From Gemmatimonadota bacterium (GTDB lineage Bacteria > Gemmatimonadota > Gemmatimonadetes > Gemmatimonadales > Gemmatimonadaceae), in assembly GCA_031127225.1 (NCBI GenBank), contig JARIEV010000016.1, positions 1 through 36,759 on the forward strand: 36,759 nucleotides of DNA, given 5' to 3'. The notes beneath the pieces are model-generated. The model searched no databases, was not told the DNA's origin, and saw nothing but the letters and a program-made list of their open reading frames with translations. The position numbers were made by a program, and so were the translations under genes. Below are positions 1,561 through 36,759 of this stretch, one piece after another (position 1 is the stretch's first letter; every line of letters begins with the position of its first letter).

Positions 1561-2268
1561 ATGCGCAGCATCATCTCGCGTTCCGTTGCACTCGCCCTAG
1601 CCGTGAGTGCGCTCGTGCCCGCCGTGCTTTCATCGCAGGCTCGTCCCGCGCCGCGCCCGCGCGCGGCCACCGCGCCCGCGTCCGGCGCCACTAGGCCGCA
1701 ACCCGGTCGCGGCGACCGCCCGCAGGGGCCCGGTGCACAGGGCCGCGGACAGCGCGGTCGCGGCGGTCATCCCGCCGCGCTGCTGCTGCGGGCACGGCAG
1801 GCGCTCGAGCTCACGGACGAGCAGGTGACGCGGCTCGAAGCGCTGCAGGCCGCGCCGCAGCCCAAGTCGAACGCCCCCGACCTCATGCGTGCGCGGGCCG
1901 ATCTGATGGAGGCCATGCAGGGCGACGGCAACCTCGCCGGCGCGCGGGCGGCGCTCGACAAGATGAGCCGCGCGCGGAATGAGGCGCTGGTGGCGCGTTT
2001 TAAGGTGCGGCAGGACGTGCGCAGTGTGCTGACGCCGGCGCAAAAGACGAAGGTCGACAACATGCGCCGCGCCCTGCGTGGACGGATGGGCGCCGCCCGT
2101 GCGGGGCGCATGGGGAAGGGCGGCATGCGGCAGGGTGGTGGCCGCATGGGCCCCGGCATGATGCCCCGCATGATGCCCGGCGCGCCGCAGGGTGGCCTAC
2201 AGGGCGCGATGCCGCGGATGCGGCGCGGTGGTGACACCGGCCCGCTGCCGGTTCCGCCCGGCAACTAG
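1561..2268 (+). CDS. Spy/CpxP-like periplasmic protein with Met/Gly/Arg-rich tail
   Basis: 235 residues with a Sec signal peptide (about 1-25). The mature protein starts with a long Pro/Arg/Ala-rich linker. The central part (about 80-175) carries two LTxxQ-type motifs: LTDEQVTRLEAL near 81 and LTPAQKTKVDNM near 159, flanking helices predicted to be alpha-helical. This is the hallmark of the Spy/CpxP/ZraP family of periplasmic chaperones and metal-sensor accessories. The last 60 residues are low complexity, rich in Met, Gly and Arg with repeated GRMG/RMM units, which is not usual for the family and could bind metal or be disordered. A GGAG site precedes the ATG, and a strong terminator follows the stop. 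It is probably a monocistronic gene. Exact client or metal is unknown. Confidence 0.7.
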   Translation: MRSIISRSVALALAVSALVPAVLSSQARPAPRPRAATAPASGATRPQPGRGDRPQGPGAQGRGQRGRGGHPAALLLRARQALELTDEQVTRLEALQAAPQPKSNAPDLMRARADLMEAMQGDGNLAGARAALDKMSRARNEALVARFKVRQDVRSVLTPAQKTKVDNMRRALRGRMGAARAGRMGKGGMRQGGGRMGPGMMPRMMPGAPQGGLQGAMPRMRRGGDTGPLPVPPGN

Positions 2269-2293
2269 CCGCCGCGCACGCCAGCCTGTGATC

Positions 2294-2330
2294 ACCGGGG
2301 CGCCAGTCGATGGCGCCCCGGTCTGTTTTC
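2294..2330 (+). terminator. Rho-independent terminator
   Basis: A perfect 12-base-pair stem, ACCGGGGCGCCA at 2294-2305 and TGGCGCCCCGGT at 2311-2322, with a five-base loop, is followed by CTGTTTTC. It ends transcription of the Spy-like gene and separates it from the peptidase gene at 2417. Confidence 0.8.
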
Positions 2331-2416
2331 ATGGGGGTGGCCTTGCCGGCCGGCCGTCGAGGCCGCCGATTTGCAGGGTGCGGGAATGTTGTGTCCACCG
2401 TTGACCGGGATCTGCC

Positions 2417-4582
2417 GTGCTCCGTTCGTCCGCCCTCCGCCATCTGCCGCGCGCCGTCGCCGTGGCGGCCTCCGTTGCCGTCGCGTCTGTCAGCATGCCG
2501 ACCACGCCACTGGCCGCGCAGCCCGCGTCGCCGGCCTCCGTGTCGTCCGATGGCGCGCTCGCTGAATCCGTGGCGCGGTGGATCGCGCTGGCCGCTCCCC
2601 CCAGTGGGGAGTCACATGCGCTCGACGCCCTGAAGCCGCTCCTGCCGGGGTGGACCCGCGACAGCATGGGCAATCTGGTCCGCCGAGTCGGTCGCGGATC
2701 GCCGCGCCGCATGGTCGCCTGCGCCATGGACGTCCCGGCGTTCGTGGTCAGCGGTATCACCGAGCAGGGCTATGTACGGCTCCATCGTACCGGCGTCGCG
2801 GCCCATCCGCTCTGGGACCAGTTCCACGAGGCGCACCAGCTGCGCATCCTCACCGCCCGCGGTGACGTCACCGGCGTGGTCGCCATCGCCAACGGGCACT
2901 TTTCCCGCCAGCACCGCGGCGACACCACGGTGGTCGGCGTGGACCAGCTCTGGGTCGACGTGGGCACCGGCACGAAAGCGCAGACGGAGGCGCTCGGCAT
3001 CGCCCTGCTCGACCCCGTCGTCGCCGCACGCCCGGTGTGGACGTACGCCGGACACGCTGCCGGCCCGGCGGCCGGGGCGCGGGCCAGCTGCGCCGCCGTG
3101 GCCAGTGCGGGCGCCGCGGCCACGGCCGCCACGCAGCCGGGGGAAACCATCTACGTGCTGTCATCGCAGCGCAGCTTCGGGTGGGTGGGGTTGGCCGCCG
3201 TCGTGGCGCGTGTGGGTCGGCTCGACGCGCTCACGCTGCTCGATGAGGGGCGCGCCACCGGCAGTGCCACCACGGTCCCCGTCGCCCGGCTGGGGGCGCC
3301 GCGCCGCCAGCTCAGCCGCGTGATCGCCTCGACCGGTCTCGACAGCGTGCGGCTCGTGTCCCCGGCGGTCCGCTACGCCGGCTCGCTCGTGGAGTCGATT
3401 GATGGCGCCGCGATCCGGGGGGTGCTGGCGGAAGCCGCGCGCGCCTCGGGGGCGACGGCCGCCCCCGCGCTACTCGCGCCGCCGCTCGACACGGTGCGGG
3501 TCCGCGCGCCGCGCCGCGACGCGTACGACGCCATCGAAAAGACCTTCGTCACCATCGCCGACCTTCCTGGGGTGCCGGGGCATGAATGGCGCGTGCGCGA
3601 GGCCATCACGGCGCTGCTCCCGGCGTGGGCCAAGGCCCGCGCCACGGTGGACAGCGCCGGCAATCTCATCGTGGCCGCTGGCCCCGAGCGTGACACGATC
3701 GCGTTCATCGCGCACATGGATGAGGTGTCGTTCGAGGTGGAAGCGATCGCCCGCGACGGCACCGTGCGGCTGGCGCGGCGCGGCGGGGTGGTCCCCAGCG
3801 CGTGGGAAGGGCAGCCCGCCGCGCTGCACTTTGACCGCACCGGCACGGGGACCGGCGCCGCCGCGGCGCCGGCCTCGTTGCGCGGGGTGTTCGTGCCGCG
3901 CGACTCCGCCCGCGTGAAAGCGCCGGCGGTGAGCACGGCGTGGTTTGGCATGGACTCCGCCGCCCTCGTGGCGGCCGGCGTGCGCGTGGGCAGCGCCGTG
4001 ACCGGCTACAAGCGCGCCGCACGACTCGGCGCCCCCGGTGACGCCGGCACGCGCCTGACCGGCCGTGGCAGCGACGATCGCACCGGCTCCACCGCCCTGC
4101 TGCACGCGGTGCAGCGTCTCGATCCGAACAGGCTGGCGCGCAAGGTGCTGTTCGTGTGGTCGGTGCGCGAGGAAGGCGGCCTGCTGGGCGCCGGGGCGTT
4201 CGGCGCCGAACACGGCCGCTCGCTGCAGCGCGTCTACAGCGTGGACACCTTCGTGTCCTCGGACACGCCGCTCGAAAATCCGGCCTTCGCCTACGCGCCG
4301 CTGGGGCAGGGCTTCGTGTTGCGCGGCCTCGATGACGGCGCCATCTCACCGCCGGCCGAACGGGCCCGGGTGCTGGCCGTGGCGCGGGCGCAGGGGATCC
4401 CGGTCCAGCTGGGCACCACACACGGCTCCACCGACGGATCAGCGATTGCCCCCTACGGCGGCCCCAACGTCGGCCTGTCGTGGCCGGGGCGCTACTCCCA
4501 CACGCCGGGTGAAGTCCTCGACCTGCGCGACGTCGCCGCGCTGGTGCGCATCATCACGGCGCTGGCGGCGGCCCCGCGGTAA
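2417..4582 (+). CDS. Exported double-length M42-type aminopeptidase, first half degenerate
   Basis: 721 residues from a GTG start, with a signal peptide ending PLAA|Q near residue 35. Residues about 370-720 look like a complete M42 (glutamyl aminopeptidase/endoglucanase M) metallopeptidase. The di-zinc ligands and general base expected for the family can be picked out: HMD at 433-435, DDR at 553-555, EE at 585-586, D610 and H695 in YSHTPGE. Residues about 45-330 can be aligned by eye to the same fold (PSGE... then PGVPGHE..., DSMGNLV versus DSAGNLI). In this copy the ligand histidine is alanine (CAMD, A103) and the EE pair appears as RS. It is therefore probably a fused pseudo-peptidase domain. 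Single-domain M42 enzymes are about 350 residues and usually cytoplasmic, so an exported tandem form is unusual. The 3' end overlaps the convergent gene by 29 bases. Confidence 0.8.
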   Translation: MLRSSALRHLPRAVAVAASVAVASVSMPTTPLAAQPASPASVSSDGALAESVARWIALAAPPSGESHALDALKPLLPGWTRDSMGNLVRRVGRGSPRRMVACAMDVPAFVVSGITEQGYVRLHRTGVAAHPLWDQFHEAHQLRILTARGDVTGVVAIANGHFSRQHRGDTTVVGVDQLWVDVGTGTKAQTEALGIALLDPVVAARPVWTYAGHAAGPAAGARASCAAVASAGAAATAATQPGETIYVLSSQRSFGWVGLAAVVARVGRLDALTLLDEGRATGSATTVPVARLGAPRRQLSRVIASTGLDSVRLVSPAVRYAGSLVESIDGAAIRGVLAEAARASGATAAPALLAPPLDTVRVRAPRRDAYDAIEKTFVTIADLPGVPGHEWRVREAITALLPAWAKARATVDSAGNLIVAAGPERDTIAFIAHMDEVSFEVEAIARDGTVRLARRGGVVPSAWEGQPAALHFDRTGTGTGAAAAPASLRGVFVPRDSARVKAPAVSTAWFGMDSAALVAAGVRVGSAVTGYKRAARLGAPGDAGTRLTGRGSDDRTGSTALLHAVQRLDPNRLARKVLFVWSVREEGGLLGAGAFGAEHGRSLQRVYSVDTFVSSDTPLENPAFAYAPLGQGFVLRGLDDGAISPPAERARVLAVARAQGIPVQLGTTHGSTDGSAIAPYGGPNVGLSWPGRYSHTPGEVLDLRDVAALVRIITALAAAPR

Positions 4583-5222: not shown

Positions 5223-5266
5223 GCGGGGGGCCGTTGTTCGGGGCGCCGTCCCCTCCGCCGAGCCGC

Positions 5267-6635: not shown

Positions 6636-6641
6636 TTGTCC

Positions 6642-7298
6642 ATGAACGACGACCACCGCCAACGGATCTTACAGGCCGCCGCCCGGGTGTACGCCCTGCA
6701 CGGCTGGCGTGGTGCGACCACCCGCCGCATCGCGGACGAGGCGGGGGTGAACGAAGTGACCCTGTTCCGTCAGTTCGGGTCCAAGGACGCCCTGCTCGAT
6801 CTCATGATGCGCGAAAGTGCCCGCATCGAGAACGACGCGCCCATGCCCCCCGTGCCCGTGGACCCCGAAGAGGAGTTGCTGGCGTGGGTCACGGTGCGCC
6901 ACACCCGCACCACCGCCATGCGGGCCATCGTGCGGCACATGCTCAGCGACGCCGACGAACGCCCCGACGCCGCCGATTGCGCCGCGCATGGACCCAGCGC
7001 GGCGGCGGCCCAACTGAGCGACTACGTGGCGAAGCTGCGCCGCCATGGCTGGCTCGCGGAACAGGGCGAGGCCTCGCCGGTCGAGGTGCGCGCCGCCGTC
7101 ACCATGCTCATGGGGGCCGTGTTCGCCGACGGCATGAACCGCGACATCATGCCCACCATGTTTGCCCAGCCCGTACCGGACACGTTACGGGCCTATGTCC
7201 GCATCTTCCTGCGCGGGCTCGGGGCGTTGCAGGAACCTGTCTCCCGTGCTGACCGTACGGCTGATGACGTCGTCCACTCCACTTCCGATTCCGCATGA
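6642..7298 (+). CDS. TetR-family transcriptional regulator of the efflux operon
   Basis: 218 residues. The N-terminal TetR helix-turn-helix is clear: RILQAAARVYALHGWRGATT, then RRIADEAGVNEVTLFRQFGS and KDALLDLM (about residues 7-55). The remaining alpha-helical region would be the ligand-binding and dimer domain; its ligand cannot be read from sequence. The ATG at 6642 places the DNA-binding domain at the very N-terminus; the frame is open further upstream but that part is unlike the family and would cover the promoter. Its stop overlaps the start of the next gene (ATGA), so it is the first gene of the pump operon rather than divergent from it, and is expected to repress both itself and the pump. 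A matching palindrome lies upstream. Confidence 0.87.
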   Translation: MNDDHRQRILQAAARVYALHGWRGATTRRIADEAGVNEVTLFRQFGSKDALLDLMMRESARIENDAPMPPVPVDPEEELLAWVTVRHTRTTAMRAIVRHMLSDADERPDAADCAAHGPSAAAAQLSDYVAKLRRHGWLAEQGEASPVEVRAAVTMLMGAVFADGMNRDIMPTMFAQPVPDTLRAYVRIFLRGLGALQEPVSRADRTADDVVHSTSDSA

Positions 7299-8857
7299 TG
7301 TTTTCCATACGTGCTTCCACTCGTCGCGTCATGCCCGCGCTGGTCGCGTCCGCGCTCGTCGCGTCGGCGATCAGCGCGTCAGCGCTCCGCGCGCAGCCCG
7401 CCGCCGCCGGCACCGCCACGGGCACCGCGCCGCGCGCCCTGTCGCTGGCCGAAGCGCTCCGGATGGCCGGCGGTGAGAGCGAGCAGATCGCCATCGCGCG
7501 CGCCGGCGCCCTGCGCGCGAAGGGGCAACTCGGTCAGGCCCGGTCCGCGCTGCTGCCGCAGCTGGCCACCACGATGAACTGGCAGAAGCAGCTGCAAAAC
7601 CAGTTTGAGGCCATCTCTTCGCGGTCGGACAACGGGTCGGGGGGCGGCGCGAGCGGGGACACGGCGTCGCTGGCCGACAACCCGATCACGCGCATCTTCG
7701 CCTCGCAGTACAACTTCAACGTGGGGCTCAGCGCCTCGCAGCCGCTGTTCACCGGCGGCCGGACCCGCGCCACGATCGCGGCGGCCCGCGCGGCACAGGA
7801 GTCGGCCGACCTCGGCATCACCAGCGCCCAGGCGCAGGTGCAGCTCGACGTCACGCAGGCCTACTACGACGCGCTCCTCACCGACCGACTGGTGTCCATC
7901 GCCGAGTCGTCGCTGGTGCAGTCGGAGCGCACGCTGCGCCAGGTCCAGCTCACGCGCGCCGTCGGCTCGGCCTCGGAGTTCGAGCTGATCCGCGCCCGCG
8001 TCACGCGCGACAATCAGCGTCCCGGCTGGCTGCAGTCGCGCACCAACCGCGATCTCGCCTACGTGCGGCTCCGCCAGCTGCTCAACCTTCCGGCCGATCA
8101 GCCGATCGCCCTGACCGACAGCATCACCGAAGCACCGATGGCGGCGCCCGCGGCCGCCGCGGCGCCGGTCACCACGGTGAACGTCAACGTCGCCGAGGTG
8201 CTCACCCTCGATCCGCAGGTGCAGGCGGCGGTGGCGCGCGTGCTGGCGGATAGCGATACCGGTACCACGCGCCGCGCGCCGGTGCTGCAGGCCCGCAAGG
8301 GTGTGGATATTGCGCAGCAGCAGCTGCGCGCCACGAAATCGCAGTGGCTGCCCACGATTGCCGCCACCACCAACTACCAGCGGCTGGCGTACCCCACCGG
8401 GCTGCTGCCGCGCAGTCTCGCCGACTTCTTCCCCAACTGGACCGTCGGCGTGGGGCTGTCGTATCCCATCTTCACCGGCGGTCGCGTGCGTGGTGAAGTG
8501 CAGGCCGCGCAGGCCGGCGTGATCGACGCGCAGCAGCGTCTGCAGCAGGTGCAGGAAGGCGCGTCGCTCGATGCACGGCAGGCCGTGGCGCAGCTCGTCG
8601 AGTCGCAGGCGGCGTGGCAGGCCAGCGTCGGCACGGCCGAACAGGCGCAGCGCGCCTACGACATCGCCGAAGTGCGCTTCCGCGAAGGCATCTCCACCCA
8701 GCTCGAATTGTCCGAGACGCGCAATCAGTTGCAGCAGGCGCTCGCCAATCGTGCGCAGGCCGCCCGCAACCTGCAGGTCGCCCGTAAGCGTCTCGAATTG
8801 CTCCCGTATCTCCCCCTGTCGCAGGGCTTCACTCCGACCACCGGCACCTCCCGATGA
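7295..8857 (+). CDS. TolC-like outer membrane efflux channel
   Basis: 520 residues with a signal peptide ending ALRA|Q near residue 34. Two related halves of the outer-membrane efflux protein family are visible: the first with LSQPLFTGGRTRATI-type strand-to-helix turn (about 145-165; here SASQPLFTGGR) and the second with its counterpart SYPIFTGGRVRGEV (about 388-400). Each is followed by long Gln/Ala-rich helices that form the periplasmic tunnel. The predicted role is to carry substrates of the RND pump across the outer membrane. Length is slightly above the usual 450-490, mainly from a Gly/Ser/Asp insert near 110-125 and an Ala-rich insert near 285. It overlaps the regulator before it and the adaptor after it by ATGA. 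Confidence 0.9.
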   Translation: MMFSIRASTRRVMPALVASALVASAISASALRAQPAAAGTATGTAPRALSLAEALRMAGGESEQIAIARAGALRAKGQLGQARSALLPQLATTMNWQKQLQNQFEAISSRSDNGSGGGASGDTASLADNPITRIFASQYNFNVGLSASQPLFTGGRTRATIAAARAAQESADLGITSAQAQVQLDVTQAYYDALLTDRLVSIAESSLVQSERTLRQVQLTRAVGSASEFELIRARVTRDNQRPGWLQSRTNRDLAYVRLRQLLNLPADQPIALTDSITEAPMAAPAAAAAPVTTVNVNVAEVLTLDPQVQAAVARVLADSDTGTTRRAPVLQARKGVDIAQQQLRATKSQWLPTIAATTNYQRLAYPTGLLPRSLADFFPNWTVGVGLSYPIFTGGRVRGEVQAAQAGVIDAQQRLQQVQEGASLDARQAVAQLVESQAAWQASVGTAEQAQRAYDIAEVRFREGISTQLELSETRNQLQQALANRAQAARNLQVARKRLELLPYLPLSQGFTPTTGTSR

Positions 8858-10026
8858 CCACCATAACACGCCGACCCGCGTCTCTGCTGCTGGCGCTTGC
8901 GCTGACAGGGGCCGCTTGCAGCAAGACTCCGGACACCGCCGCCGGGAATGCGGCACCGCTGGCGCAGGCCATCGGTCCGCAGAACATCGCGGTGGCCCGC
9001 AACGACACGCTGCGCAGCGGCCCGGCGATTTCCGGGACGCTGGCCGCCGATCGCGAAGCGCGCATCCGCGCCGAAATCGCGGGCGCGGTGCTGCAGACGT
9101 TCGCCGAGCAGGGCGAGCAGGTGAGCGCCGGGATGGTGCTGGCGCGCCTCGATGATGCCAACGTGCGCGACGCCGAACTCTCGGCGCGCTCTGCGGTGGC
9201 GCAGGCTACCGTCGCGGCCGGGCAGGCGGCGCGTGAACTGCAGCGCGCGACCACGCTGGCCGCGGCCGGCGCGATTGCTGAGCGCGATGTGGAGGGCGCC
9301 GAGCGGGCGAGCCTCGGGGCACAGGCGCAGTTGGCCGATGCCAAGGCGCGCCTGTCCAGCGCCGAGAAGAACCTGCGCAACACGATGGTGCGCGCACCCT
9401 TTGCGGGCGTGGTGTCGGAGCGCGCCGTGAGCCCCGGGGACATCGTGGCCCCGGGTGCGGCGCTGTTCACCGTGATCGATCCGCGCAGCCTGCGGGTGGA
9501 AGGGGCCGTGCCCACGTCGGCACTGGCCGATGTGCGCGTGGGGGCGCCGGTGCTCTTCACGGTGAACGGATCGGACCGCGTGCTGGAAGGCCGCGTCACG
9601 CGGGTGAGCCCGATGGTCGATCCGCAGACGAAGCAGGTGCGTCTGCTGGCGTCGGTGCCGAATCAGGCCGGTGCGCTGGTGGCCGGGCTGTTCGTGGAAG
9701 GGCGGGTGGCCTCCGAGAAGCGCGTGGGGGTGATGGTGCCTGAGAATGCCGTCGACCAGACCGGCATCGTCTCTACCGTGATGCGCCTCAAGGGCGGCAA
9801 GGTGGAGAAGGTTGAAGTGCAGTTGGGCGTGCGCGACGAAGCCGCCTCGATGTTCGAAATCACGAACGGGATCGCCAGCGGCGACACCGTGCTGATGGGC
9901 GCGGCCCGTGGCATCTCGGTGGGCTCGCCCGTGGTGGTGTCGGCGCCGCGCGATGCCACGCCCGCACCGGCCGCTGCGCCCGCGCCGGCTCCTGCGCCGG
10001 CTCCTGCGCCCGCGAAGAAGAACTGA
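8854..10026 (+). CDS. RND efflux periplasmic adaptor lipoprotein (MFP/HlyD family)
   Basis: 390 residues. The signal peptide ends in a lipobox, LTGAAC, so the mature protein should be anchored through Cys 22. The biotinyl-lipoyl-like halves frame a coiled-coil hairpin (about 95-175), then come the beta-barrel part (APFAGVVSERAVSPGD near 183) and the membrane-proximal domain (about 290-365). It joins the inner-membrane pump to the TolC-like channel. The C-terminus is an Ala/Pro tail encoded by short repeats (9982-10005), which is not part of the family fold. Start and stop overlap or nearly touch the neighbours. Confidence 0.9.
   Translation: MTTITRRPASLLLALALTGAACSKTPDTAAGNAAPLAQAIGPQNIAVARNDTLRSGPAISGTLAADREARIRAEIAGAVLQTFAEQGEQVSAGMVLARLDDANVRDAELSARSAVAQATVAAGQAARELQRATTLAAAGAIAERDVEGAERASLGAQAQLADAKARLSSAEKNLRNTMVRAPFAGVVSERAVSPGDIVAPGAALFTVIDPRSLRVEGAVPTSALADVRVGAPVLFTVNGSDRVLEGRVTRVSPMVDPQTKQVRLLASVPNQAGALVAGLFVEGRVASEKRVGVMVPENAVDQTGIVSTVMRLKGGKVEKVEVQLGVRDEAASMFEITNGIASGDTVLMGAARGISVGSPVVVSAPRDATPAPAAAPAPAPAPAPAPAKKN
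9982..10005 (+). repeat. Two 12-base tandem repeats in the adaptor tail
   Basis: GCGCCGGCTCCT occurs twice in a row and encodes APAP units. In-frame repeats of this kind can change in number without shifting the frame. Confidence 0.75.
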
Positions 10027-18627: not shown

Positions 18628-19701
18628 CTACGGCGTCATTCGCAGCGCCCAGTGCGTGCGGAGGTACTGCTCGAGCACCACTGCGGTGGCGTCGGCGAAG
18701 CGCTCGCGGTTGGCCGGGGTGTCCCGGACGCCGGTGAAATTGGCTTCGATCTGCACCCCGCAGATGGTGCCGCCGGTCACCCCGCCCACGGACGCCGCAC
18801 CGGCACCGCAGGTGTGACGGCGGGTATTCTCGCCGCCGGTGAAGTAGTCCGCGCCCGCCGGCCGCGGGTCGCTGCTGCTGGGGAGCGACGGGAACCCCTG
18901 CGCGGCGTACAGCGTGCCCAGGCTGGCCGGTCCGCGGAGGAGGGCCGAGAACGAGAGCGGCGACAGCTGCGACAGCGTGAGAATGCTCGAGGCATTTTCC
19001 GCGGTGCCGGCGGCGTCGAGGGCGGCGTCGCTGCCGTCGAGGAGCGCACTGGACAGCAGGTACCCCAACTCCAGCCGCTGCACCGCATGGCCGTGGCCGT
19101 GCATGTCCATGTACCAGCCCTTGCCGTGCGACTTGAGCACCGCGCTCTTGGCGAGCTCGATGAACCCGTGCCATTCCCCGAGCGCCTCGGCCGCCGTGGC
19201 GTTGCCGCAGGCGGCTTCCAGCGGGAGCCGGTTGGGGTCGAGCTTCCGGCGTGAGAGGTGCGAGATGACCACGTGCGGGTACGACCCGAACCGCGCGGCG
19301 AAGCGCGCCTGCATGACGCGGGCGAGATCGGCCGTGTTGGCGTCGGTGACCGTGGTGGCCGAGCCGCCGCAGGCCGCCGCAGTGCGATCGGGGATGCCGC
19401 TGGGGGTGAGTGCCCCGCCGTGGGGGGCCGTGAGGATGACCGGCGCATTCCCCGCGAGGTACTCCACGTAGTTGTTGCGCCCGAAATACGACTGGCCGGC
19501 CACGTAGACCGTGGGGGCCGGCGGGACGACCGGCGTGGTCGGTGCGGTTGGGGGCGTCGGTGCCGCGGCGTCCGAGCCGCCGCAGGCGGCGGCACCGGCG
19601 GTGACACCGGCGACCGCGAGGGTCAGCAGGAACGTGCGGTGCCGCCCGGTACGGGGCGTGCCGGCACGGGGCCGCGGAGCAAGGCGAGGCAAGAAGCGCA
19701 T
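18628..19701 (-). CDS. N-formylglutamate-amidohydrolase-like lipoprotein
   Basis: 357 residues. A basic N-terminus and hydrophobic stretch end at lipobox AGAAACGG (Cys near 40), followed by a Pro/Thr linker. The rest matches the N-formylglutamate amidohydrolase (HutG-type) fold: PVILTAPHGG (near 88), ISHLSRRKLDPNR (near 145), YMDMHGHGH (near 195) with the metal-binding histidines, and GVQIEANFTGVRDTP near the end. Family members cleave N-formyl-L-glutamate to formate and glutamate in the cytoplasm during histidine breakdown. A lipid-anchored copy in the envelope is unusual, and no other histidine-degradation genes are present, so the substrate may differ. It is divergent from the amino-acid operon, with only 50 bases between start codons. 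Confidence 0.72.
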   Translation of the reverse strand: MRFLPRLAPRPRAGTPRTGRHRTFLLTLAVAGVTAGAAACGGSDAAAPTPPTAPTTPVVPPAPTVYVAGQSYFGRNNYVEYLAGNAPVILTAPHGGALTPSGIPDRTAAACGGSATTVTDANTADLARVMQARFAARFGSYPHVVISHLSRRKLDPNRLPLEAACGNATAAEALGEWHGFIELAKSAVLKSHGKGWYMDMHGHGHAVQRLELGYLLSSALLDGSDAALDAAGTAENASSILTLSQLSPLSFSALLRGPASLGTLYAAQGFPSLPSSSDPRPAGADYFTGGENTRRHTCGAGAASVGGVTGGTICGVQIEANFTGVRDTPANRERFADATAVVLEQYLRTHWALRMTP

Positions 19702-19751
19702 GGTCCAATTTGACTGATTGCGCCCACGCCGCCCAGTCCGTAGCGTCTGCT

Positions 19752-26278: not shown

Positions 26279-28873
26279 ATGCCTCCTTCGAATTCGCTTC
26301 GTGCCTTGGCCCTGGTCGGGGTGATGAGTGTGGTGTGCGCCGCGTGTCCCGAGGCGCTGTTCGGCCAGGCGCGACCCAAGGCACCGGTCAAGCGCGACAC
26401 GCTGACGGTCGAGGAGCGGGTGGTGGCGCGCGAGGCGTCACGTGACGCCCGCGCCATGGCTCGCCGTCAGCTGTCGCCCGACAGCATGGTGCGGCGCCTG
26501 CGGGCCGATTCGGCCAGCGCGTCGGCCTTCAGCGACCCCGAAGCGCAGCGCATTTTGCTGCGGGCCCGCGAGGCGCGCACTCGGCAGGACAGCGCGCTTC
26601 GGGCCTACAAGGCGACCGCCACGCAGCGCATTTCGATGGGCATGGGTGCCAAGCGGTTGGGGCTCGAGAAGCTGTTGTTCCGTGGGGACAACGTGGCCGA
26701 GATCTCGTGGCGACGCGATGTGGGCGTCCGGGTGCGTCCGATCGGGTCGCGCATGACCGTGCCGATGGGCGGCAATGCGAATGGTGACTTCAGCGGTGCG
26801 CTCTCCATTCCGTACTTCCCGGGGCGTGAAACGCTGTGGTTCCCAAGCAGCAACTTCGGGGTGGTGAAGAGCGACATCGACGAACGTGAGATCATTCATC
26901 CGCTCGCGAACGGCGCCGAGACGTACTACCAGTATGCCACCGGCGACTCGGTGGACATCACGCTCGATGGCGGGCGTGTGATCAAGCTGCGCGAATTGCG
27001 CATCACGGCGCGTCGTCCCGACTGGCGGGTGTTCGTGGGTTCGTTCTGGTTCGATCGTGATGGTGGCCAGCTGGTGCGCGCGGCGTATCGGCTGGCGGCC
27101 GAGCTCGAGATCTGGGATGTCGCCTCGGAAGACAGCGAGGCCGACACCAAGGTGAGCCGCGAGGCGGACCGTTTGCGTGATTCGATTGCCCGGGCGCGGA
27201 TGCCGCGTGATCTGTACGTCAAGGATTCGATCCTGCGCGCACCGTCGGTGCAGGCGCGGGCCAGCGGGACCGGGGCCGACGATGGGCCACCGGCGTGGGT
27301 GAAAGCGACGTTCCGTCCCGCCAAGGCGAAGCTCGATGCGATCACCGTGGAGTACGGCTTGTATCAGGGCACGTTCTGGTTGCCGCGCGCCAACAGTGCC
27401 ACGGCGTCGGCGCAGATCGGCTTCATCCGTACGCCATTCAGCATCGATGAGAAGTTCACGTACGACGAGGTGAACGGTGACTTCTCGTTGGCGGCGATCC
27501 CGGCGGCGCGTCTCTCCGGCGCCGGGACGCGCAGTGACACCACGGTGCTGGTGGGGAGTGGTAACGTCACCATCAGTATCGGCGGCGGCGCCGTGCAGGG
27601 CGGTACCGGCAACGCCACGGTCGATACGGTGAAGCTGTCGGCCACCGAGCGCCTCCGGCGTCGGCTGTGCGCGCAGGATTCCACGTACACGCGGGTGGAG
27701 TCGCGCTATCAGGGGGCGTTGCGCGTGGCGTACGATATGCCGTGCGATGCGGCGTCGCTCGCGACCTCGCCGGCGCTGCCGCCGGCGAGCGCCACGGACG
27801 ATGCGGTGTTCGACGTGCGGGCGCGCGACGAACTGCTGGCCGCCCTCGACCTGTCGTTGCAGCCCGGCTGGATGCCGCAGATGCCGAAGGTGCGACTGGG
27901 CTCCGACTTGCTGCGCTACAACCGCGTGGAGGGCATCTCGGCCGGCGTGAACGTGTCGCAGGTGCTGGGCGCAGGGTACTCGCTCAACGCGGTGGGGCGC
28001 ATTGGACACGCCGACCGGCACGCGAACGGTGAACTGAGCCTGGCGCGCACGAACGGCGCGCGCACCGTGACGGCCACACTCTTCCACCGGCTCGCCGCTA
28101 CCAACCCGGAGTGGGCCGGCGGGCTGTCGCTGGGCGCGTCGTTACCGGCGTTCGTGTACGGCCGCGACGAAGGCTTTTACTACCGCACGTTCGGCGCTGA
28201 ACTCGGGGAACGTCGCACGGGACGACATGGGTCGCTCGAGTACCGCCTCTTCCTCGAGCGGCAGTGGACGGCCGGCGACACCAATGTGGTCAACACCTTC
28301 TCGCTGGCGAAGCTGATCGCCGACCGTCGGTTCCGCCGCAACATCGAAGCTGAGAACGTGTCGGTGACCGGGGTGGCCGGTACCTGGACGCGGGTGCTGT
28401 TGGAGCAGCCGCGCGGACTGCGCGCGACGGCGGTGGTCAGCGCGGAAGCGGGGACCGGCACCTTCCAGTACGCGCGGGCGGCGGTGGAAGGCACCGTGTC
28501 GCAGCCCGTGAGCCGGTTCGCCGCGTCGCTGACCGGGGCGATCGGGAGTGCCGTGGGCGATCTGCCACGGCAGCGCGGCTGGTTCGTGGGCGGCGTGCGG
28601 ACGGTGCGCGGCCAGATCGCGGGCACACAGGACGGTGACGCGTTCTGGCTGGCGCGCGCCGAGGTGGGCACGCGCCAGGGGATCGTCCGCCCCGTGGGCT
28701 TCTACGACATCGGCTGGGCGGGGAGCCGCGGCACCTTCGGTGCCGTGCAGCCGCAGCGTGGCGCGGGCATTGGCCTGAGCGCACTGGACGGGCTCATCCG
28801 CGTAGACTTCTCGCGCGGCCTGTATCCCCTCAAGCAGTGGCGCACCGATTTCTATCTCAGCGCGGCGTTGTAG
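26279..28873 (+). CDS. Large exported protein with C-terminal outer-membrane barrel, DUF5686-like
   Basis: 864 residues from the ATG at 26279. A signal peptide ends near ALFG|Q (about 30). Residues about 35-110 are charged helices with many Arg/Asp/Ser. The next part (about 115-390) is beta-rich, with LRITARRPDWRVFVGSFWF and DRDGGQLVRAAYRL, reminiscent of the periplasmic part of Bacteroidetes DUF5686 proteins. From about 535 the sequence alternates like a transmembrane barrel, beginning RYNRVEGISAGVNV and ending VRGQIAGTQDGD, then GIGLSALDGLIRVDFSRGLY, like surface-antigen/Omp85-type barrels. Two cysteines (CAQD, MPCD) may pair. The frame is open far upstream across the antisense gene, but that stretch is not coding. 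Molecular function is unknown. The 3' end overlaps the convergent gene by 17 bases. Confidence 0.7.
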   Translation: MPPSNSLRALALVGVMSVVCAACPEALFGQARPKAPVKRDTLTVEERVVAREASRDARAMARRQLSPDSMVRRLRADSASASAFSDPEAQRILLRAREARTRQDSALRAYKATATQRISMGMGAKRLGLEKLLFRGDNVAEISWRRDVGVRVRPIGSRMTVPMGGNANGDFSGALSIPYFPGRETLWFPSSNFGVVKSDIDEREIIHPLANGAETYYQYATGDSVDITLDGGRVIKLRELRITARRPDWRVFVGSFWFDRDGGQLVRAAYRLAAELEIWDVASEDSEADTKVSREADRLRDSIARARMPRDLYVKDSILRAPSVQARASGTGADDGPPAWVKATFRPAKAKLDAITVEYGLYQGTFWLPRANSATASAQIGFIRTPFSIDEKFTYDEVNGDFSLAAIPAARLSGAGTRSDTTVLVGSGNVTISIGGGAVQGGTGNATVDTVKLSATERLRRRLCAQDSTYTRVESRYQGALRVAYDMPCDAASLATSPALPPASATDDAVFDVRARDELLAALDLSLQPGWMPQMPKVRLGSDLLRYNRVEGISAGVNVSQVLGAGYSLNAVGRIGHADRHANGELSLARTNGARTVTATLFHRLAATNPEWAGGLSLGASLPAFVYGRDEGFYYRTFGAELGERRTGRHGSLEYRLFLERQWTAGDTNVVNTFSLAKLIADRRFRRNIEAENVSVTGVAGTWTRVLLEQPRGLRATAVVSAEAGTGTFQYARAAVEGTVSQPVSRFAASLTGAIGSAVGDLPRQRGWFVGGVRTVRGQIAGTQDGDAFWLARAEVGTRQGIVRPVGFYDIGWAGSRGTFGAVQPQRGAGIGLSALDGLIRVDFSRGLYPLKQWRTDFYLSAAL

Positions 28874-29762
28874 CCGCGCGTCCGGTCCGGATGATCGCTG
28901 ACGCCTGTTCCGCGGTGCCCGACAGCAGCAGCCCGCGATAGCCCTTGGCGATGCGGTCGGTGATGCTCCCCGCGGTCGCGGTCATCATGCTCGGCATGCC
29001 CGCTTTCGCACCCAGATCGCGCACGCGCTGGCACGCCGCCTCGGCGCCGGCGGCGTTCCCACCCATGTCGCGGGTGAGACTGCCGATGCCGCACGAGAGC
29101 AGGCTGTACCCGGGAAGCGCGGCGATGTCGGCCGCCACCTCGATTGCCCCCGCATCCTCCACCATCAGCATCGCCACCACGGTGCCCCGCGGGTTGGCCG
29201 GTGACCAGACGTTCGCACCGGCCTCCGTGAAGAACGCGGCGGCCGTGCGCGCTTCGGCCACGGTGCGGACGTGCGGGATCACCACGCCATCAGCGCCGAG
29301 CGCGAGGACTTCCTTCACGCGCGCCCGGGTGTCGGCCTCGCCCGCGGTTTCGATGGTGGGAATGCGCACCAGCAGCGTGGGGCGCCGCGCCGCGCTGCTG
29401 CGCGCGATGCCGGCCACCATGGCGCGCACGGCGTCGGCGTCGTACGCGCCTTCGAGGTTGAGAAACAGGTAGTCGAGCAGCGGATTCTCGGCGAGCGCCT
29501 GCGCGCCCTCGGCTGTGTAGACCGGCGGCAGCCGGTTGCTGCCGGGCGCGGGTGCCCGCTCGCTGGGGACGAACATGCCGAAGGCCGAGGCGCCGCTTTG
29601 CCACAGCGTGATGGCCGTGACGGAACGCGTACCGGCCGAGGCTGACGACGGGGATGCGCCGCGTGTACCGGCACAGGCACTAAGGGCACCCGCGCTAAGG
29701 GCACCCGCACTCAGCAGGAGGGCCGCGAGGGGATGGACGGCGAGTCGGCGGACGGAACGCAT
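28857..29762 (-). CDS. HpcH/HpaI-aldolase-fold lipoprotein, probable pseudoenzyme
   Basis: 301 residues from the ATG at 29762. The signal peptide contains two copies of SAGAL and ends in lipobox LSAC (Cys 30). The body aligns by eye with HpcH/HpaI class II aldolases: LFLNLEGAYDADAV (98-111), TLLVRIP (129-135), ADGVVIPHV (157-165), MVEDAGAI (200-207) and GIGSLTRDMGG (225-235). In E. coli HpaI the matching positions hold catalytic His45, Arg70, Glu149 and Asp175. Here Arg133 and Glu202 remain, but the His is Gly105 and the Asp is Ser228. Loss of the base and a metal ligand argues against aldolase activity. A lipid-anchored envelope location is also odd for this family. Function unknown. It is divergent from the nucleoside transporter gene. 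Confidence 0.72.
   Translation of the reverse strand: MRSVRRLAVHPLAALLLSAGALSAGALSACAGTRGASPSSASAGTRSVTAITLWQSGASAFGMFVPSERAPAPGSNRLPPVYTAEGAQALAENPLLDYLFLNLEGAYDADAVRAMVAGIARSSAARRPTLLVRIPTIETAGEADTRARVKEVLALGADGVVIPHVRTVAEARTAAAFFTEAGANVWSPANPRGTVVAMLMVEDAGAIEVAADIAALPGYSLLSCGIGSLTRDMGGNAAGAEAACQRVRDLGAKAGMPSMMTATAGSITDRIAKGYRGLLLSGTAEQASAIIRTGRAATTPR
29681..29710. repeat. Two 15-base tandem repeats in the signal peptide
   Basis: TAAGGGCACCCGCGC and TAAGGGCACCCGCAC are adjacent on the plus strand. On the minus strand they encode the repeated AGALS in the hydrophobic core of the lipoprotein signal. Confidence 0.75.
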
Positions 29763-29913
29763 GGGGCTTTCTCGGTGGGGGACACACGCGGGTATCGATC
29801 GGGCCAAGATACCGTTCGGCGCGTGCTCGCGTTAGCGAAGGCAGGGACACAAATTGTCGCGTTCGCGGTCCCGATCATTCCCGTGTGCGTCTCCCGTCTC
29901 CTGCCCGCCGCCG

Positions 29914-32987: not shown

Positions 32988-33020
32988 CCGTCGTTGTCTC
33001 CCCTCCCGCCCCCCTCGCGC

Positions 33021-35000
33021 ATGACTCGTCGTTCTTTCCCTGTGGCGGCGCGTGTCACCGCCGTGCTGGCGACCCTCGCCTGTGCCCGCGCGGCGGCCGC
33101 GCAGGGCACCCCGCCGGCCGCCCCACCGGCGGCCCCACCGGCGGCGCCCGTGTTCGTGAACGGCATGGCGCAGGTGGTTCCCGCGTGGCGCGATTCCACC
33201 ACCTGGATCCGGCAGGACCTCTGGGTCGAGACCGATTTCGACAGTGACCGCGACGGGCGCCGCGACCGCGTGCACGTGGACGTCACGCGCCCGGCGCAGA
33301 CCGACGCGGGGCTCAAGGTGCCCATCCTGTACGGGGCCAGTCCGTACTTCGCCGGCACGTCACGCGACGACTCCAACTGGAACGTGCAGCAGGAGCTCGG
33401 CGATCAGCCGCCCACGCGTCGCCCGCTCGCTGCGCCGGTGCATCAGCCCAACCGCCGGCGTATTTCGAACGTGCTGGTGAACGAGTGGGTGCCGCGCGGC
33501 TTTGCCGTGGTGCACTCCGAAGCGCCGGGCACCGGCTTGTCGCAGGGGTGCGCCACGGTGGGCGACTACCCCGAGCGCGCGCCGATGAAGTTCGTGATCG
33601 ACTGGCTCAACGGCCGCGCCAAGGGCTACACGTCGCCCACGGGACGCGACGAAGTGCGCGCGACGGCGTGGTCCACCGGCAAGGTGGGGATGATCGGCAC
33701 GTCGTACGAAGGCACGCTGCCGCTCGCGGCGGCCACCACCGGGGTGAAGGGGCTCGAGGTGGTCGTGCCGGTGTCGCCGAACACGTCGTACTACCTGTAC
33801 TACCGCGCCAACGGGCTCGTGCGCTCACCGGGTGGCTATCTGGGTGAGGACGTGGACGTGCTGTACGACTTCGTGGCCAGTGGCGATCCCGCCACGCGCG
33901 CGCGCTGCGACGTGCTCTGGAAGACCAACGTGTTCGCGGGTCCGACGGGACAGGACCGCGCCACCGGCGACTTCAACGACTTCTGGAAGAAGCGCGATCT
34001 GCTGCCGCACGTGAAAAACATCAAGGCGGCGGTGCTGCTTGCGCACGGCCTCAACGACTACAACGTGACGCCGGCGCACAGCGTGCGCATCTACGACGAG
34101 ATGAAGAAGCGCGGGCTGCCGGTGTCGCTGTATCTCCATCAGGGCGGCCACGGCGGCAACCCGCCGGCCGACATGCTCAATCGCTGGTTCAGTCACTACC
34201 TGTACGGCGTGGACAACGGCGTGCGGGGCGAGGCGGAAGCGTGGATCGTGCAGGATGCGGGCGCACAGGCGCCCTCGGCCGCCGCCGCCACCGCGCCGGC
34301 CACGCCGTCGGCCGCGCCGGCGCCGCGTGGACGTGTCACCGCGCTGCCCACGCCGTTCGCCTCGTTTCCGGTGCCGGGCACCGTGCCGGTGACGCTGTAT
34401 CCGTCCGCCGGCGGACGCGGCATCGCGTCGCTGTCGTACACGGCTGCGCGCACGGGGACGGAATCCCTGATCGACGACGTGGCCTTCAGCGGCAGCGCGC
34501 TCGCGAGTGTGCCCACGTCGGCCAACCGCCTGCTGTATTCGACGCCGGTGTTCCGCGACACGGTGCACCTGTCGGGGACGCCGCGCGTGACCCTTCGCGT
34601 GGCGGCCAACGTGAAGGCGGCCAATCTCAGTGTGTGGCTGGTGATGCTGCCCTACGATTCCGCCCGGGCCGGCTCGCAGAGCTACAAGGGGAGCGTCTCA
34701 CACGGCTGGGCGGACCTCCAGAACGCCAAGTCCCTCACGTCGGGCGGCGAGTATACCTCGGCGAAGCGCGGCACACCGCTGCAAGCCGGCGAGTATCGCG
34801 AGGTCACCTTCGATCTCGAGCCCACCGATGAGTTCATTCCCGCCGGCAAGCAGCTCGCGGTCATGATCATGTCGAGCGACCGCGAGTTCACGTTGTGGCC
34901 GAAGGCCGGGGCCGAGCTCACGCTCGATCTCGCGAAGTCACGGTTCCTGCTGCCGATCGTGGGCGGTACGGCCGCGTTGCAGAACGCCGGAATGCGCTGA
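33021..35000 (+). CDS. Exported Xaa-Pro dipeptidyl-peptidase, S15/X-Pro family
   Basis: 659 residues from the ATG at 33021. Signal peptide ends RAAAA|Q near 27, followed by a PPAAPPAAPPAAP linker. The catalytic alpha/beta hydrolase domain has the S15 elbow GMIGTSYEGTLPL with nucleophile S228, then D346 in HGLNDYNV and H377 in QGGHGGN. The C-terminal jelly-roll typical of PepX and cocaine-esterase-like proteins (about 425-655) contains LYSTPVFRDTVHLSGTPRVTL, and an Ala/Pro hinge separates it from the hydrolase. Expected action: release of X-Pro dipeptides from peptide N-termini in the periplasm or outside. It probably works with the other exported peptidases of the window. Confidence 0.9.
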   Translation: MTRRSFPVAARVTAVLATLACARAAAAQGTPPAAPPAAPPAAPVFVNGMAQVVPAWRDSTTWIRQDLWVETDFDSDRDGRRDRVHVDVTRPAQTDAGLKVPILYGASPYFAGTSRDDSNWNVQQELGDQPPTRRPLAAPVHQPNRRRISNVLVNEWVPRGFAVVHSEAPGTGLSQGCATVGDYPERAPMKFVIDWLNGRAKGYTSPTGRDEVRATAWSTGKVGMIGTSYEGTLPLAAATTGVKGLEVVVPVSPNTSYYLYYRANGLVRSPGGYLGEDVDVLYDFVASGDPATRARCDVLWKTNVFAGPTGQDRATGDFNDFWKKRDLLPHVKNIKAAVLLAHGLNDYNVTPAHSVRIYDEMKKRGLPVSLYLHQGGHGGNPPADMLNRWFSHYLYGVDNGVRGEAEAWIVQDAGAQAPSAAAATAPATPSAAPAPRGRVTALPTPFASFPVPGTVPVTLYPSAGGRGIASLSYTAARTGTESLIDDVAFSGSALASVPTSANRLLYSTPVFRDTVHLSGTPRVTLRVAANVKAANLSVWLVMLPYDSARAGSQSYKGSVSHGWADLQNAKSLTSGGEYTSAKRGTPLQAGEYREVTFDLEPTDEFIPAGKQLAVMIMSSDREFTLWPKAGAELTLDLAKSRFLLPIVGGTAALQNAGMR

Positions 35001-35028
35001 TCAGCTTGTGCTGATCAGCTTGTGCTGA
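34996..35028. repeat. 14-base tandem repeat containing a palindrome
   Basis: GCTGATCAGCTTGT at 34996-35009 is repeated exactly at 35010-35023 and followed by GCTGA. Each unit contains the perfect palindrome GCTGATCAGC. It begins in the last codon of the S15 peptidase gene and ends 48 bases before the next gene. Confidence 0.85.
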
Positions 35029-35076
35029 GTCGCGTTCGCTGATCCGAATCTCCTTCTCCACCTCCACGTGACTGTC

Positions 35077-36759
35077 ATGCGTTCTCTGTTTCGTCTTGCC
35101 GCACCGACGCTGTTCCTCGCTGGCGTCGCGGGCGCGCAAACGCCCGACGCGGCGACACTGAACGGCCTGCGTTGGCGTTCGATCGGCCCCGTGAACATGG
35201 CCGGGCGCATCACCGACGTCGAAGCGCATCCCAGCGCGCCCAAAACGTTCTACGTGGCCGGCGCCACCGGCGGCATCTGGAAGACCGTCAATGCCGGCAC
35301 GTCGTTCGTGCCGCTCTGGGAGAAAGGCCCGATCGCCTCCATGGGCGACCTCGCGATTTCCCCAAGCAATCCGAACATCATCTGGGCCGGCACGGGCGAA
35401 GAAGATTCACGCAACTCCGTGGCGCCCGGCTACGGCATCTACAAGTCGGTCGATGGCGGCGTGACGTGGCAGAGCATGGGCCTCGAAAAAACGCAGCATA
35501 TCGGGCGCATTCTCGTGCATCCCACCAACCCCGACATCGTGTACGTCGCGGCGCTGGGCGCGCTGTGGGCCACCAATCCCGAACGCGGGTTGTACAAGAC
35601 GATCGACGGCGGCAAGACGTGGACGCTCGCCAAGTTCATCAGCGACAAGGCCGGCTTCGTCGATCTCGCGATGGATCCGCGCGATCCGAACGTGCTCTAC
35701 GCCACGAGCTGGGAGCGCATCCGGAAGGCGCATTTCCTCAAGAGCGGTGGCCCGGGCTCGGCGCTCTGGAAGTCGACCGATGGTGGCACGACGTGGAAGG
35801 AGATCACCGGTGGTGGTTTCCCGGCCACGACAAAGGGACGCATCAACCTGGCCATCGCACCAAGCAATCCCGACATGGTGTATGCCATGGTCGAAGCCGA
35901 CAGCGTGCGCGGCGCCAAGCCGCAGCGGCTGTTGAGCGGGTTGTATCGCTCGAAAGATGCCGGCGCGACGTGGACGTGGATGAGCACGATCAACAACCGT
36001 CCGTTCTACTTCTCGCAGATCCGCATCGATCCGAAGAACGCGGACCGCGTGTATCGCATGGCCGTCGACTTCGCCTTCTCCAATGACGGTGGTGCGTCGT
36101 GGCGCGCGGGTATGGTCGGCATTCACGAAGATTATCATGCCATGTGGATCGACCCGAACGATCCTGAGCATTTCATCGTCGGTGGTGACGCGGGCATCTT
36201 CCAGACGTGGGACAAGGGCGGCACGTACGACGCCGTGAACAACATGGCGATGGGCCAGTTCTACGGCATCAGCTACGACTTTCAGGTGCCGTATCGCGTG
36301 TGCGGCGGCTTGCAGGACAACGGCACGTCGTGCGGCTTGAGCCGTCGCGCCAGCGCCCCGCTGCAGATGACCGACTGGTTCGCGATCTTTGCCGCCGACG
36401 GCTTGCAGACGGCACAGGATCCGTTCAATCCCGACTACGTGTACTACGAGTCGCAGGGCGGCAACATTGCGCGCCGCAATGTGGCCACGGGTGATGTGAT
36501 GAGCGTGAAGGCCCGCACCGTCACCCGCGCGCAGTTCGGACAGCAGATCGCGCGCATCCGCGGCGCCGGCACCACGCCGCTCACGCCGGAGCAGACGAAG
36601 AGCATCGCCGACATCCGCGTGCAGATGAAGACGGCGCTGGCCGATCCCAACGTGGCGACGCGCTGGAACTGGAATACGCCGTTCATCCTGTCGCGCCACG
36701 ATGCGAACGTGCTGTACTCGGGTGCTGAGAAGCTGTTCAAGTCGGTGAAGAAGGGTGAG
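35077..36759 (+). CDS. Exported VPS10/sortilin-like Asp-box propeller protein, 3' end off the window
   Basis: 561 residues are visible and the frame is still open at the edge. Signal peptide ends VAGA|Q near 21. The N-terminus LRWRSIGPVNMAGRI opens a beta-propeller with at least five Asp-box (BNR) turns: SVDGGVTW, TIDGGKTW, STDGGTTW, SKDAGATW and SNDGGASW. Each is followed by a blade containing a HPTNPDIVYV- or DPRDPNVLYA-type strand. This is the VPS10-domain 'glycosyl hydrolase' group, about 1000 residues in full. Despite the name, enzymatic activity is unproven for this group. Short Asp-box loops keep blades together and need not be catalytic. Probably secreted or periplasmic. No ribosome site is seen before the ATG. 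Confidence 0.85.
   Translation, partial: MRSLFRLAAPTLFLAGVAGAQTPDAATLNGLRWRSIGPVNMAGRITDVEAHPSAPKTFYVAGATGGIWKTVNAGTSFVPLWEKGPIASMGDLAISPSNPNIIWAGTGEEDSRNSVAPGYGIYKSVDGGVTWQSMGLEKTQHIGRILVHPTNPDIVYVAALGALWATNPERGLYKTIDGGKTWTLAKFISDKAGFVDLAMDPRDPNVLYATSWERIRKAHFLKSGGPGSALWKSTDGGTTWKEITGGGFPATTKGRINLAIAPSNPDMVYAMVEADSVRGAKPQRLLSGLYRSKDAGATWTWMSTINNRPFYFSQIRIDPKNADRVYRMAVDFAFSNDGGASWRAGMVGIHEDYHAMWIDPNDPEHFIVGGDAGIFQTWDKGGTYDAVNNMAMGQFYGISYDFQVPYRVCGGLQDNGTSCGLSRRASAPLQMTDWFAIFAADGLQTAQDPFNPDYVYYESQGGNIARRNVATGDVMSVKARTVTRAQFGQQIARIRGAGTTPLTPEQTKSIADIRVQMKTALADPNVATRWNWNTPFILSRHDANVLYSGAEKLFKSVKKGE

What the first reader, a model, noticed from the sequence alone, without database searches (positions are those of the whole stretch)
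1561..36759. Glutamine follows the signal-peptide cleavage site in all seven Sec-exported proteins
I see Q immediately after the likely cleavage point in all seven non-lipoprotein Sec substrates: LSS|Q (gene at 1561), LAA|Q (2417), LRA|Q (7295), LAA|Q (24416), LFG|Q (26279), AAA|Q (33021) and AGA|Q (35077). Five of seven have Leu at -3. The three lipoproteins and two Tat proteins do not follow it. A preference for Gln at +1, with cyclisation to pyroglutamate by glutaminyl cyclase, has been described for Bacteroidetes as the 'Q-rule'. If this window is Gemmatimonadota, the rule may extend to another phylum and shape the stability of its whole secretome. For the 1561 product an alternative cleavage after SQA is possible.
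Basis: partly seen in the sequence, partly recalled or inferred. Interest (0 to 1): 0.75.

Follow-up and report, generated by a model that had tools for sequence, protein, structure and literature searches.

The report
Glutamine-first rule in Gemmatimonadetes exported proteins
In this bacterium most exported proteins appear to start with glutamine once their export tag is cut off, as described for Bacteroidetes, and its genome carries a probably membrane-anchored enzyme, of a kind unrelated to theirs, that could cap that glutamine.

Summary
In detail: all seven Sec/SPI precursors of the window carry Gln after a plausible signal-peptide site. It is genome-wide. In a 676-kb sample of this genome 59 of 86 Sec-like candidates have a motif|Gln site in the c-region, against 8 of 86 in mature windows, 3 of 86 for Glu, and 5 of 26 in E. 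coli. Orthologs keep the Gln. Relatives across class Gemmatimonadetes show it; a small Glassbacteria sample does not.

The genome has one glutaminyl cyclase (QC) found: plant-type (type I, PF05096), a predicted lipoprotein. No animal-type QC was found in it or in ten relatives of its genus. Most other surveyed Gemmatimonadota have a type II QC like Bacteroidota. Of 249 genomes 60 have type I only, 144 type II only, 24 both, 21 neither. Unrelated cyclases thus seem to replace each other under an unchanged Gln signature, which favours pyroglutamate capping.

Against it: two sampled genomes with neither QC keep the rule (28 of 50 candidates), Glassbacteria have a QC without the rule, my model missed the Bacteroidota control, and no pyroglutamate was measured. 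New variant of a known kind.

The parts
1561..1635 (+). signal peptide of LTXXQ-family protein (gene 1561-2268), cut LSS|Q; Gln codon 1636-1638
   Evidence: Gln kept in 12 of 12 readable copies
2417..2518 (+). signal peptide of M42-type peptidase (2417-4582), cut LAA|Q
7295..7393 (+). signal peptide of outer-membrane efflux protein (OEP, 7295-8857), cut LRA|Q
26018..26104 (-). signal peptide of a protein with an M20 dimerisation domain (24416-26104), cut LAA|Q
26279..26365 (+). signal peptide of a large protein without a Pfam match (26279-28873), cut LFG|Q
   Evidence: Gln kept in 16 of 16 copies although the upstream Cys are not always kept
33021..33101 (+). signal peptide of S15-type peptidase (33021-35000), cut AAA|Q; an atypical TLAC stretch upstream leaves a lipoprotein possible
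35077..35136 (+). signal peptide of Sortilin-Vps10/BNR-type protein (35077-36759, runs off the window), cut AGA|Q
8854..10026 (+). lipoprotein (HlyD-type) with Cys at +1: does not follow the rule
18628..19701 (-). lipoprotein with Cys at +1: does not follow the rule
28857..29807 (-). lipoprotein by eye (LSAC): does not follow the rule
19710..21083 (+). Tat-type (SRRDF) class-V aminotransferase precursor: does not follow the rule
21087..22421 (+). Tat-type (RRTFL) precursor with a weak PF04389 match; M20-type by recall: does not follow the rule

Best explanation
Signal peptidase I cuts L/A-x-A|Q and bares Gln. A periplasm-facing lipoprotein glutaminyl cyclase, here the single plant-type (type I, PF05096) enzyme at G000:C190:17500-18207, then converts it to pyroglutamate, which blocks aminopeptidases, of which this genome has many candidates. 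In most other surveyed Gemmatimonadota an unrelated animal-type (type II, M28-fold) lipoprotein cyclase takes that place. Shown from sequence: the Gln excess, its conservation, the enzymes, their lipoboxes and their partly complementary distribution. Inferred: the cyclisation, its place and the protection.
For: Gln site in 59 of 86 candidates versus 8 of 86 mature windows and 3-7 of 86 for E, D, N, K, H; E. coli K-12 in the same script 5 of 26, mature 4 of 26. An EM fit that started near background at +1 settled on Gln in 54 of 86 own candidates, 56 of 91 sites in ten other genomes and 30 of 44 in named class loci, but 0 of 26 in E. coli and 1 of 15 in Glassbacteria. Gln kept in 12 of 12 and 16 of 16 copies in the genus. 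By eye 12 of the 13 best M28 matches of the own genome have Gln after the signal peptide (L007 does not). One PF05096 match in the own genome, 343 bits; best solved relatives are glutamine cyclotransferases 3mbr, 3nol and papaya 2faw/2iwa; the six active-site residues recalled for papaya QC (E69, W83, W110, N155, W169, K225) are all present and five of the six are invariant in 22 Gemmatimonadota sequences. Own genus: 11 of 11 surveyed genomes with type I, 0 of 11 with type II at E <= 1e-30. Survey: 60 type I only, 144 type II only, 24 both, 21 neither of 249; at genus level within families 'neither' is rarer than by shuffling (13 versus 18.6, P 0.0013).
Against: No pyroglutamate was seen. G125 (one contig, 90% complete) and G161 (two contigs, 92%) have neither QC at the thresholds used yet show Gln in 14 of 23 and 14 of 27 candidates. 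Glassbacteria carry type II QC but show Gln in only 2 of 11 and 0 of 4. The Bacteroidota control came out weak: 11 of 32 by motif and 4 of 44 with Balneolales by EM against a published mean of 71%, so the script misses or dilutes real cases and its fractions are not true Q-values. A finder blind to +1 failed to place sites (4 of 85 Gln in the own set, Pro the commonest -1), so the counts rest on motif enrichment or on a model that sees +1. Small samples: G060 2 of 7, G017 2 of 4, G166 2 of 4. The own genome is 84% complete, so its lack of type II QC leans on its relatives; the lipobox of its QC (AFGA|C) is atypical.
Confidence: 0.7

Rival explanations
1. The Gln is a cleavage-site feature read by signal peptidase I (it marks the true site in Ala-rich signal peptides full of A-x-A) and cyclisation is incidental.
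For: Gln persists in G125 and G161 without a known QC; a type II QC does not bring the rule in Glassbacteria; Leu is the commonest residue at -3 of the Gln sites (30 of 59).
Against: One or other of two unrelated cyclases is present in 228 of 249 genomes, and both types carry lipoboxes, which is hard to explain if cyclisation is incidental; in Bacteroidetes with the same rule pyroglutamate was found in mass spectra (PMC5837995, passages read).
Confidence: 0.2
2. In some lineages (G125, G161 and their clades) a third, unrecognised cyclase or spontaneous cyclisation serves the rule.
For: 12 of 167 well-assembled class genomes have neither type (two of them, G089 and G174, belong to genera that otherwise have type I); rule intact in the two sampled, G125 and G161. 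The place where type II QC often sits is closed in G141, G150 and G151, which have neither type, so there its absence is not an assembly gap.
Against: No candidate enzyme was found. G125 has only 6 PF04389 matches; the four of them that were read (L131, L141, L146, L160) look by eye like ordinary peptidases; L137 and L155 were not read.
Confidence: 0.3
3. The seven hits are a by-eye artefact of choosing sites where Gln stands, in Ala-rich, high-GC proteins.
For: Ala, Leu, Val and Pro also follow the motif more often in the c-region than in mature windows (60 versus 29, 43 versus 18, 40 versus 24, 32 versus 10), as the Ala-rich core would give.
Against: No other polar residue behaves like Gln (59 versus 8): E 3 versus 11, D 7 versus 19, N 4 versus 7, K 7 versus 9, R 21 versus 29, S 24 versus 21, T 31 versus 22; E. 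coli is not enriched; orthologs keep the Gln.
Confidence: 0.02

Closest known systems
Bacteroidetes Q-rule (Bochtler 2018, PMC5837995; Szczesniak 2023, PMC10653852; passages read, not whole texts)
   Same: Most SPI substrates seem to expose Gln; an extracytoplasmic QC is encoded.
   Different: Different phylum. The papers call the rule Bacteroidetes-specific or exclusive, though the first also lists high values in three Chlorobi outliers and Ignavibacterium album (77%). The QC of the own genus is type I, not type II. Pyroglutamate was not measured here.
Type I (plant/bacterial) glutaminyl cyclase, PF05096 (Xanthomonas and papaya QC)
   Same: Profile, best solved relatives and six recalled active-site residues.
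   Different: Predicted lipoprotein in a genome with a Gln-first secretome; [quoted passage not shown]
Type II bacterial glutaminyl cyclase (P. gingivalis, T. forsythia and kin)
   Same: Found in 168 of 249 surveyed Gemmatimonadota with invariant HWD, GAND, GED and DDH blocks; a loose lipobox motif in 68 of 70 Gemmatimonadetes loci.
   Different: Not found in the own genus; the Gemmatimonadetes sequences form their own clade beside Glassbacteria, not inside Bacteroidota (quick tree); often next to an sprA-like gene.

Membership tests
Q-rule secretome (as defined for Bacteroidetes) | Gln at +1 in about half or more of SPI substrates | tested here: met
   59 of 86 loose candidates by motif, 54 of 86 by EM; SignalP was not available
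Q-rule secretome (as defined for Bacteroidetes) | the exposed Gln is cyclised to pyroglutamate | not testable with these tools
   needs mass spectrometry
Q-rule secretome (as defined for Bacteroidetes) | an extracytoplasmic glutaminyl cyclase | tested here: met
   PF05096 protein with signal peptide and Cys (AFGA|C, atypical lipobox); location inferred
Q-rule secretome (as defined for Bacteroidetes) | that cyclase is of type II | tested here: not met
   0 of 11 genomes of the own genus at E <= 1e-30; own genome 84% complete
Q-rule secretome (as defined for Bacteroidetes) | rule independent of the protein's final location | tested here: inconclusive
   seen for an outer-membrane efflux protein, peptidases and a repeat protein; no systematic localisation
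Type I glutaminyl cyclase PF05096 | profile over cut-off, solved relatives, active-site residues | tested here: met
   343 bits against 22.3; 3mbr 4.6e-75; residues (the list of residues is recalled)
Type I glutaminyl cyclase PF05096 | cyclase activity | not testable with these tools
   needs an enzyme assay
Type II glutaminyl cyclase (relatives, not own genome) | closer to solved bacterial type II QCs than to aminopeptidases | tested here: met
   for the G129 protein: 6qql and 7cje at 1e-61; best chain named aminopeptidase of another kind (YwaD) 3.5e-11 (3tc8 and 4fuu are labelled leucine aminopeptidase there, the latter also glutamine cyclotransferase)

The most novel reading that the evidence does not exclude
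Pyroglutamate capping of the secretome is an old trait shared by Gemmatimonadetes and Bacteroidota, kept up by interchangeable, unrelated cyclases: type II, inherited and often next to an sprA-like translocon gene; type I instead of it in Gemmatimonas and other lineages; and a still unknown third enzyme in a few. Capping the secretome would then be a true physiological role of at least some bacterial type I cyclases.
Probability: 0.35. Interest if true: 0.75.

Novelty: new variant of a known kind. Interest (0 to 1): 0.62.

Why it matters
It takes a secretome-wide N-terminal rule, described in print as exclusive to Bacteroidetes (with a few outliers elsewhere), into a second phylum, and gives bacterial type I glutaminyl cyclases a likely set of natural substrates. 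The exchange of two unrelated enzymes under one unchanged sequence signature suggests that the product, a capped N-terminus, is what selection keeps. It also makes the question testable: Gemmatimonas has the rule with one type I enzyme found, and some relatives have the rule with no known enzyme found.

Tried and rejected
A +1-blind cleavage model was tried and failed: in the own set it drifted to Pro at -1, and it gave 3-6% Gln in every set of 26 or more candidates, so I do not use it. The EM model that sees +1 also missed the Bacteroidota control (4 of 44, with Balneolales). Start calling by codon usage alone cut off signal peptides; I then searched starts around the called one, blind to +1. 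My guess that the best M28 match of the own genome (L001) is a type II cyclase was wrong: it reads as an aminopeptidase. That the plant-type QC is needed for the rule was rejected after (genomes without it keep the rule). That a QC of either type is needed is weakened. A third cyclase in the sprA-comEA slot was looked for and not found; my first request for that slot was misplaced by about 2 kb. Rows dropped or moved before counts: five genomes with weak PF05096 matches (best E 1.5e-5 or worse) were not counted as type I; three genomes with broken type II fragments (G014, G175, G209) were moved to type II; candidates labelled lipoprotein were left out of the c-region counts, which drops at least two Gln cases, one of them gene 33021 of the window; 2 of the 80 named loci (L254, L264, same genomes as G013 and probably G199) were left out of the group counts; G161 alone had one stretch that entered only the count.
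Full report
Observation. The products are an LTXXQ protein, an M42 peptidase, an outer-membrane efflux protein, a protein with an M20 dimerisation domain, a large protein without a Pfam match, an S15 peptidase and a Sortilin-Vps10/BNR protein. The three lipoproteins and two Tat precursors do not follow it. Gene 33021 also has an atypical TLAC stretch and is the least certain of the seven.

Genome-wide test. I took 676 kb of the same genome (the window plus 40 stretches), called genes, and looked for signal-peptide cores without using the +1 residue. SignalP was not available. For every residue X, I counted candidates (sec- plus tat-labelled) with [ALVSTIGMFC]-x-[AGS]|X in the c-region. Gln: 59 of 86, against 8 of 86 in mature windows of the same proteins. 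Glu 3 (mature 11), Asp 7 (19), Asn 4 (7), Lys 7 (9), His 4 (5), Arg 21 (29), Ser 24 (21), Thr 31 (22). Ala 60 (29), Leu 43 (18), Val 40 (24) and Pro 32 (10) are also more frequent, as expected next to an Ala-rich core. E. coli K-12 by the same script: Gln 5 of 26, mature 4 of 26. Fisher P is 3e-16 for own c-region against mature. An EM model that began near background at +1 settled on Gln for 54 of 86 own candidates and 0 of 26 in E. coli; it missed the Bacteroidota control (4 of 44 with Balneolales), and a model blind to +1 failed to place sites. By eye, many of the 27 non-Gln candidates are prepilins, Tat proteins, anchors or cytosolic proteins, while a few of the 59 are not SPI substrates either, so the true share is probably higher than 69%; that is a reading, not a count. 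By eye 12 of the 13 best M28 matches of the genome also have Gln there.

Conservation. In the genus, 12 of 12 readable copies of gene 1561 (of 16 loci) and 16 of 16 copies of gene 26279, the window's own included, keep the Gln while the residues before it vary. This settles S|Q for gene 1561.

Who the host is. Two genomes that the tool marks as the same family have type II QC sequences identical to records named Gemmatimonadaceae bacterium and Gemmatimonas sp. (G237 and L299, G202 and L267), so the family is Gemmatimonadaceae. The genus is probably Gemmatimonas: a complete genome in it has 4,636,964 bases, which I recall as G. aurantiaca T-27.

How far it extends. These are six families of the class; f3, f4 and f8 were not sampled in this way. 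Named loci of the class: 32/44. Glassbacteria: 2/11 in f10 (taken as Glassbacteria because their QC groups with the named ones) and 0/4. Others: Calditrichota 6/7, KSB1 7/15, Ignavibacteriae/Kryptonia 3/8, Balneolales 3/12, Bacteroidota 11/32, Krumholzibacteriota and Hebobacterum 0/2, Poribacteria 0/1, Acidobacteriota 1/1, unnamed 0/7. The Bacteroidota figure is well under the published mean of 71% (PMC5837995), so my script underestimates, and its fractions should be compared only with each other. The named loci were found through their type II QC.

The enzyme. The own genome has a single PF05096 match (343 bits): a 287-aa protein with a signal peptide ending AFGA|C, an atypical lipobox. Its closest solved relatives are glutamine cyclotransferases (3mbr, 3nol, 2faw/2iwa). 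The six papaya active-site residues, recalled and then found at those numbers in the printed chain, are present. In 18 of 30 type I loci a mutS and/or mug-like gene lies in the flank. The own genome also has 26 PF04389 matches, so peptidase candidates of that fold are plentiful.

Two enzyme types. A type II QC is found in relatives (best solved relatives 6qql, 7cje, 6qro). Survey of 249 genomes of the phylum: PF05096 in 89, of which I count 84 strong ones; type II in 165 at E <= 1e-30 plus 3 with fragments. Together: 60 type I only, 144 type II only, 24 both, 21 neither. The 11 surveyed genomes of the own genus all have type I, and none has type II at that threshold. If independent, about 56 of 249 would have neither. 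Since genomes are related, I also shuffled at genus level within families: 13 genera with neither against 18.6 expected, P 0.0013. A loose lipobox motif precedes the type II enzyme in 68 of 70 Gemmatimonadetes loci; by eye many type I loci have one too. The Gemmatimonadetes type II sequences form one clade beside Glassbacteria and apart from Bacteroidota in a quick tree (the careful tree did not finish; deep forks are weak), which speaks for inheritance rather than recent import.

An unexpected neighbour. In 44 of 72 Gemmatimonadetes loci, 4 of 4 Calditrichota, 2 of 4 KSB1 and 1 of 7 others, an sprA-like gene (type IX secretion translocon relative) ends within 800 bases before the type II QC gene; in 0 of 13 Bacteroidota, 0 of 4 Balneolales, 0 of 4 Ignavibacteriae/Kryptonia and 0 of 2 Glassbacteria. 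The search used seven such proteins as queries, so their own loci match by construction, distant forms can be missed, and some loci are the same genome twice. Pfam confirms SprA_N in the four proteins scanned (L250, L267, L290, L306), and PF14349 rings in 32 of 249 genomes at E <= 1e-15. comEA/pilB-like genes follow the QC within 3.5 kb in 29 of 39 class loci with enough DNA. I read that place in five genomes without type II QC: in G141, G150 and G061 the comEA-like gene follows sprA directly; in G151 too, but there the end of sprA is inferred from spacing; in G174 an integrase-like gene follows and comEA was not seen. Whether the own genome has sprA is unresolved: no PF14349 match at E <= 1e-15, but a named family member scores only 3e-13. 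A paper notes that type IX systems may occur in Gemmatimonadetes (PMC11285876, passage).

Reading. The most economical account is capping: SPI bares Gln, a lipoprotein cyclase turns it into pyroglutamate, and which of two unrelated folds does this has changed over time while the Gln has not. Results against it are the QC-less genomes that keep the rule and Glassbacteria with a QC but hardly any +1 Gln. A signal-peptidase preference would explain both exceptions but not the presence of a cyclase in 228 of 249 genomes.

Literature. Seen: passages of PMC5837995, PMC10653852, PMC7948796 and PMC11285876; listings otherwise. PMC5837995 reports Q-values over 48% in 332 of 334 Bacteroidetes, under 9% in most Chlorobi, and 77% in Ignavibacterium album; Gemmatimonad- does not occur in its main text. 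PMC10653852 says 'exclusively in the Bacteroidetes phylum'. No paper in the held library joins Gemmatimonas with pyroglutamate or Gemmatimon- with glutaminyl cyclase. The listings of searches (20 of 33; 1 of 1; 25 of 415; 10 of 16; 3 of 3) show no title about the rule in this phylum. Subscription papers and preprints are not held, so this is no proof of absence.

Noticed in passing
L250, L267 (Gemmatimonadetes), L290 (KSB1), L306 (Calditrichota); by size and place also L260, L283, L289, L298, L304, L307, L322, L273, L262: An sprA-like gene of about 2,000 codons lies directly before the type II QC gene (SprA_N confirmed by Pfam in the first four); not found in the 13 Bacteroidota loci.
   Followed up: partly
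L364, L365, L366, L368 (G141, G150, G151, G061): In these genomes without type II QC the comEA-like gene follows sprA directly, so the QC place is closed (in L366 the sprA end is inferred).
   Followed up: yes
G125 (L111-L115, L191-L200), G161 (L130, L201-L210): Gln-first rule kept although neither known cyclase type was found.
   Followed up: partly
L240, L241, L247, L248; G003, G007: Glassbacteria carry type II QC but show little or no +1 Gln.
   Followed up: partly
L021 and 17 other type I loci: A mutS and/or mug-like gene lies in the flank of the type I QC in 18 of 30 loci.
   Followed up: no
own genome sample, 59 Gln sites: Leu is the commonest residue at -3 (30 of 59), while Ala is in the E. 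coli set (17 of 26).
   Followed up: partly
L288, L294 (Calditrichota): There the type II QC itself seems to be an SPI substrate starting with Gln (AAAQ, VSAQ) rather than a lipoprotein.
   Followed up: no
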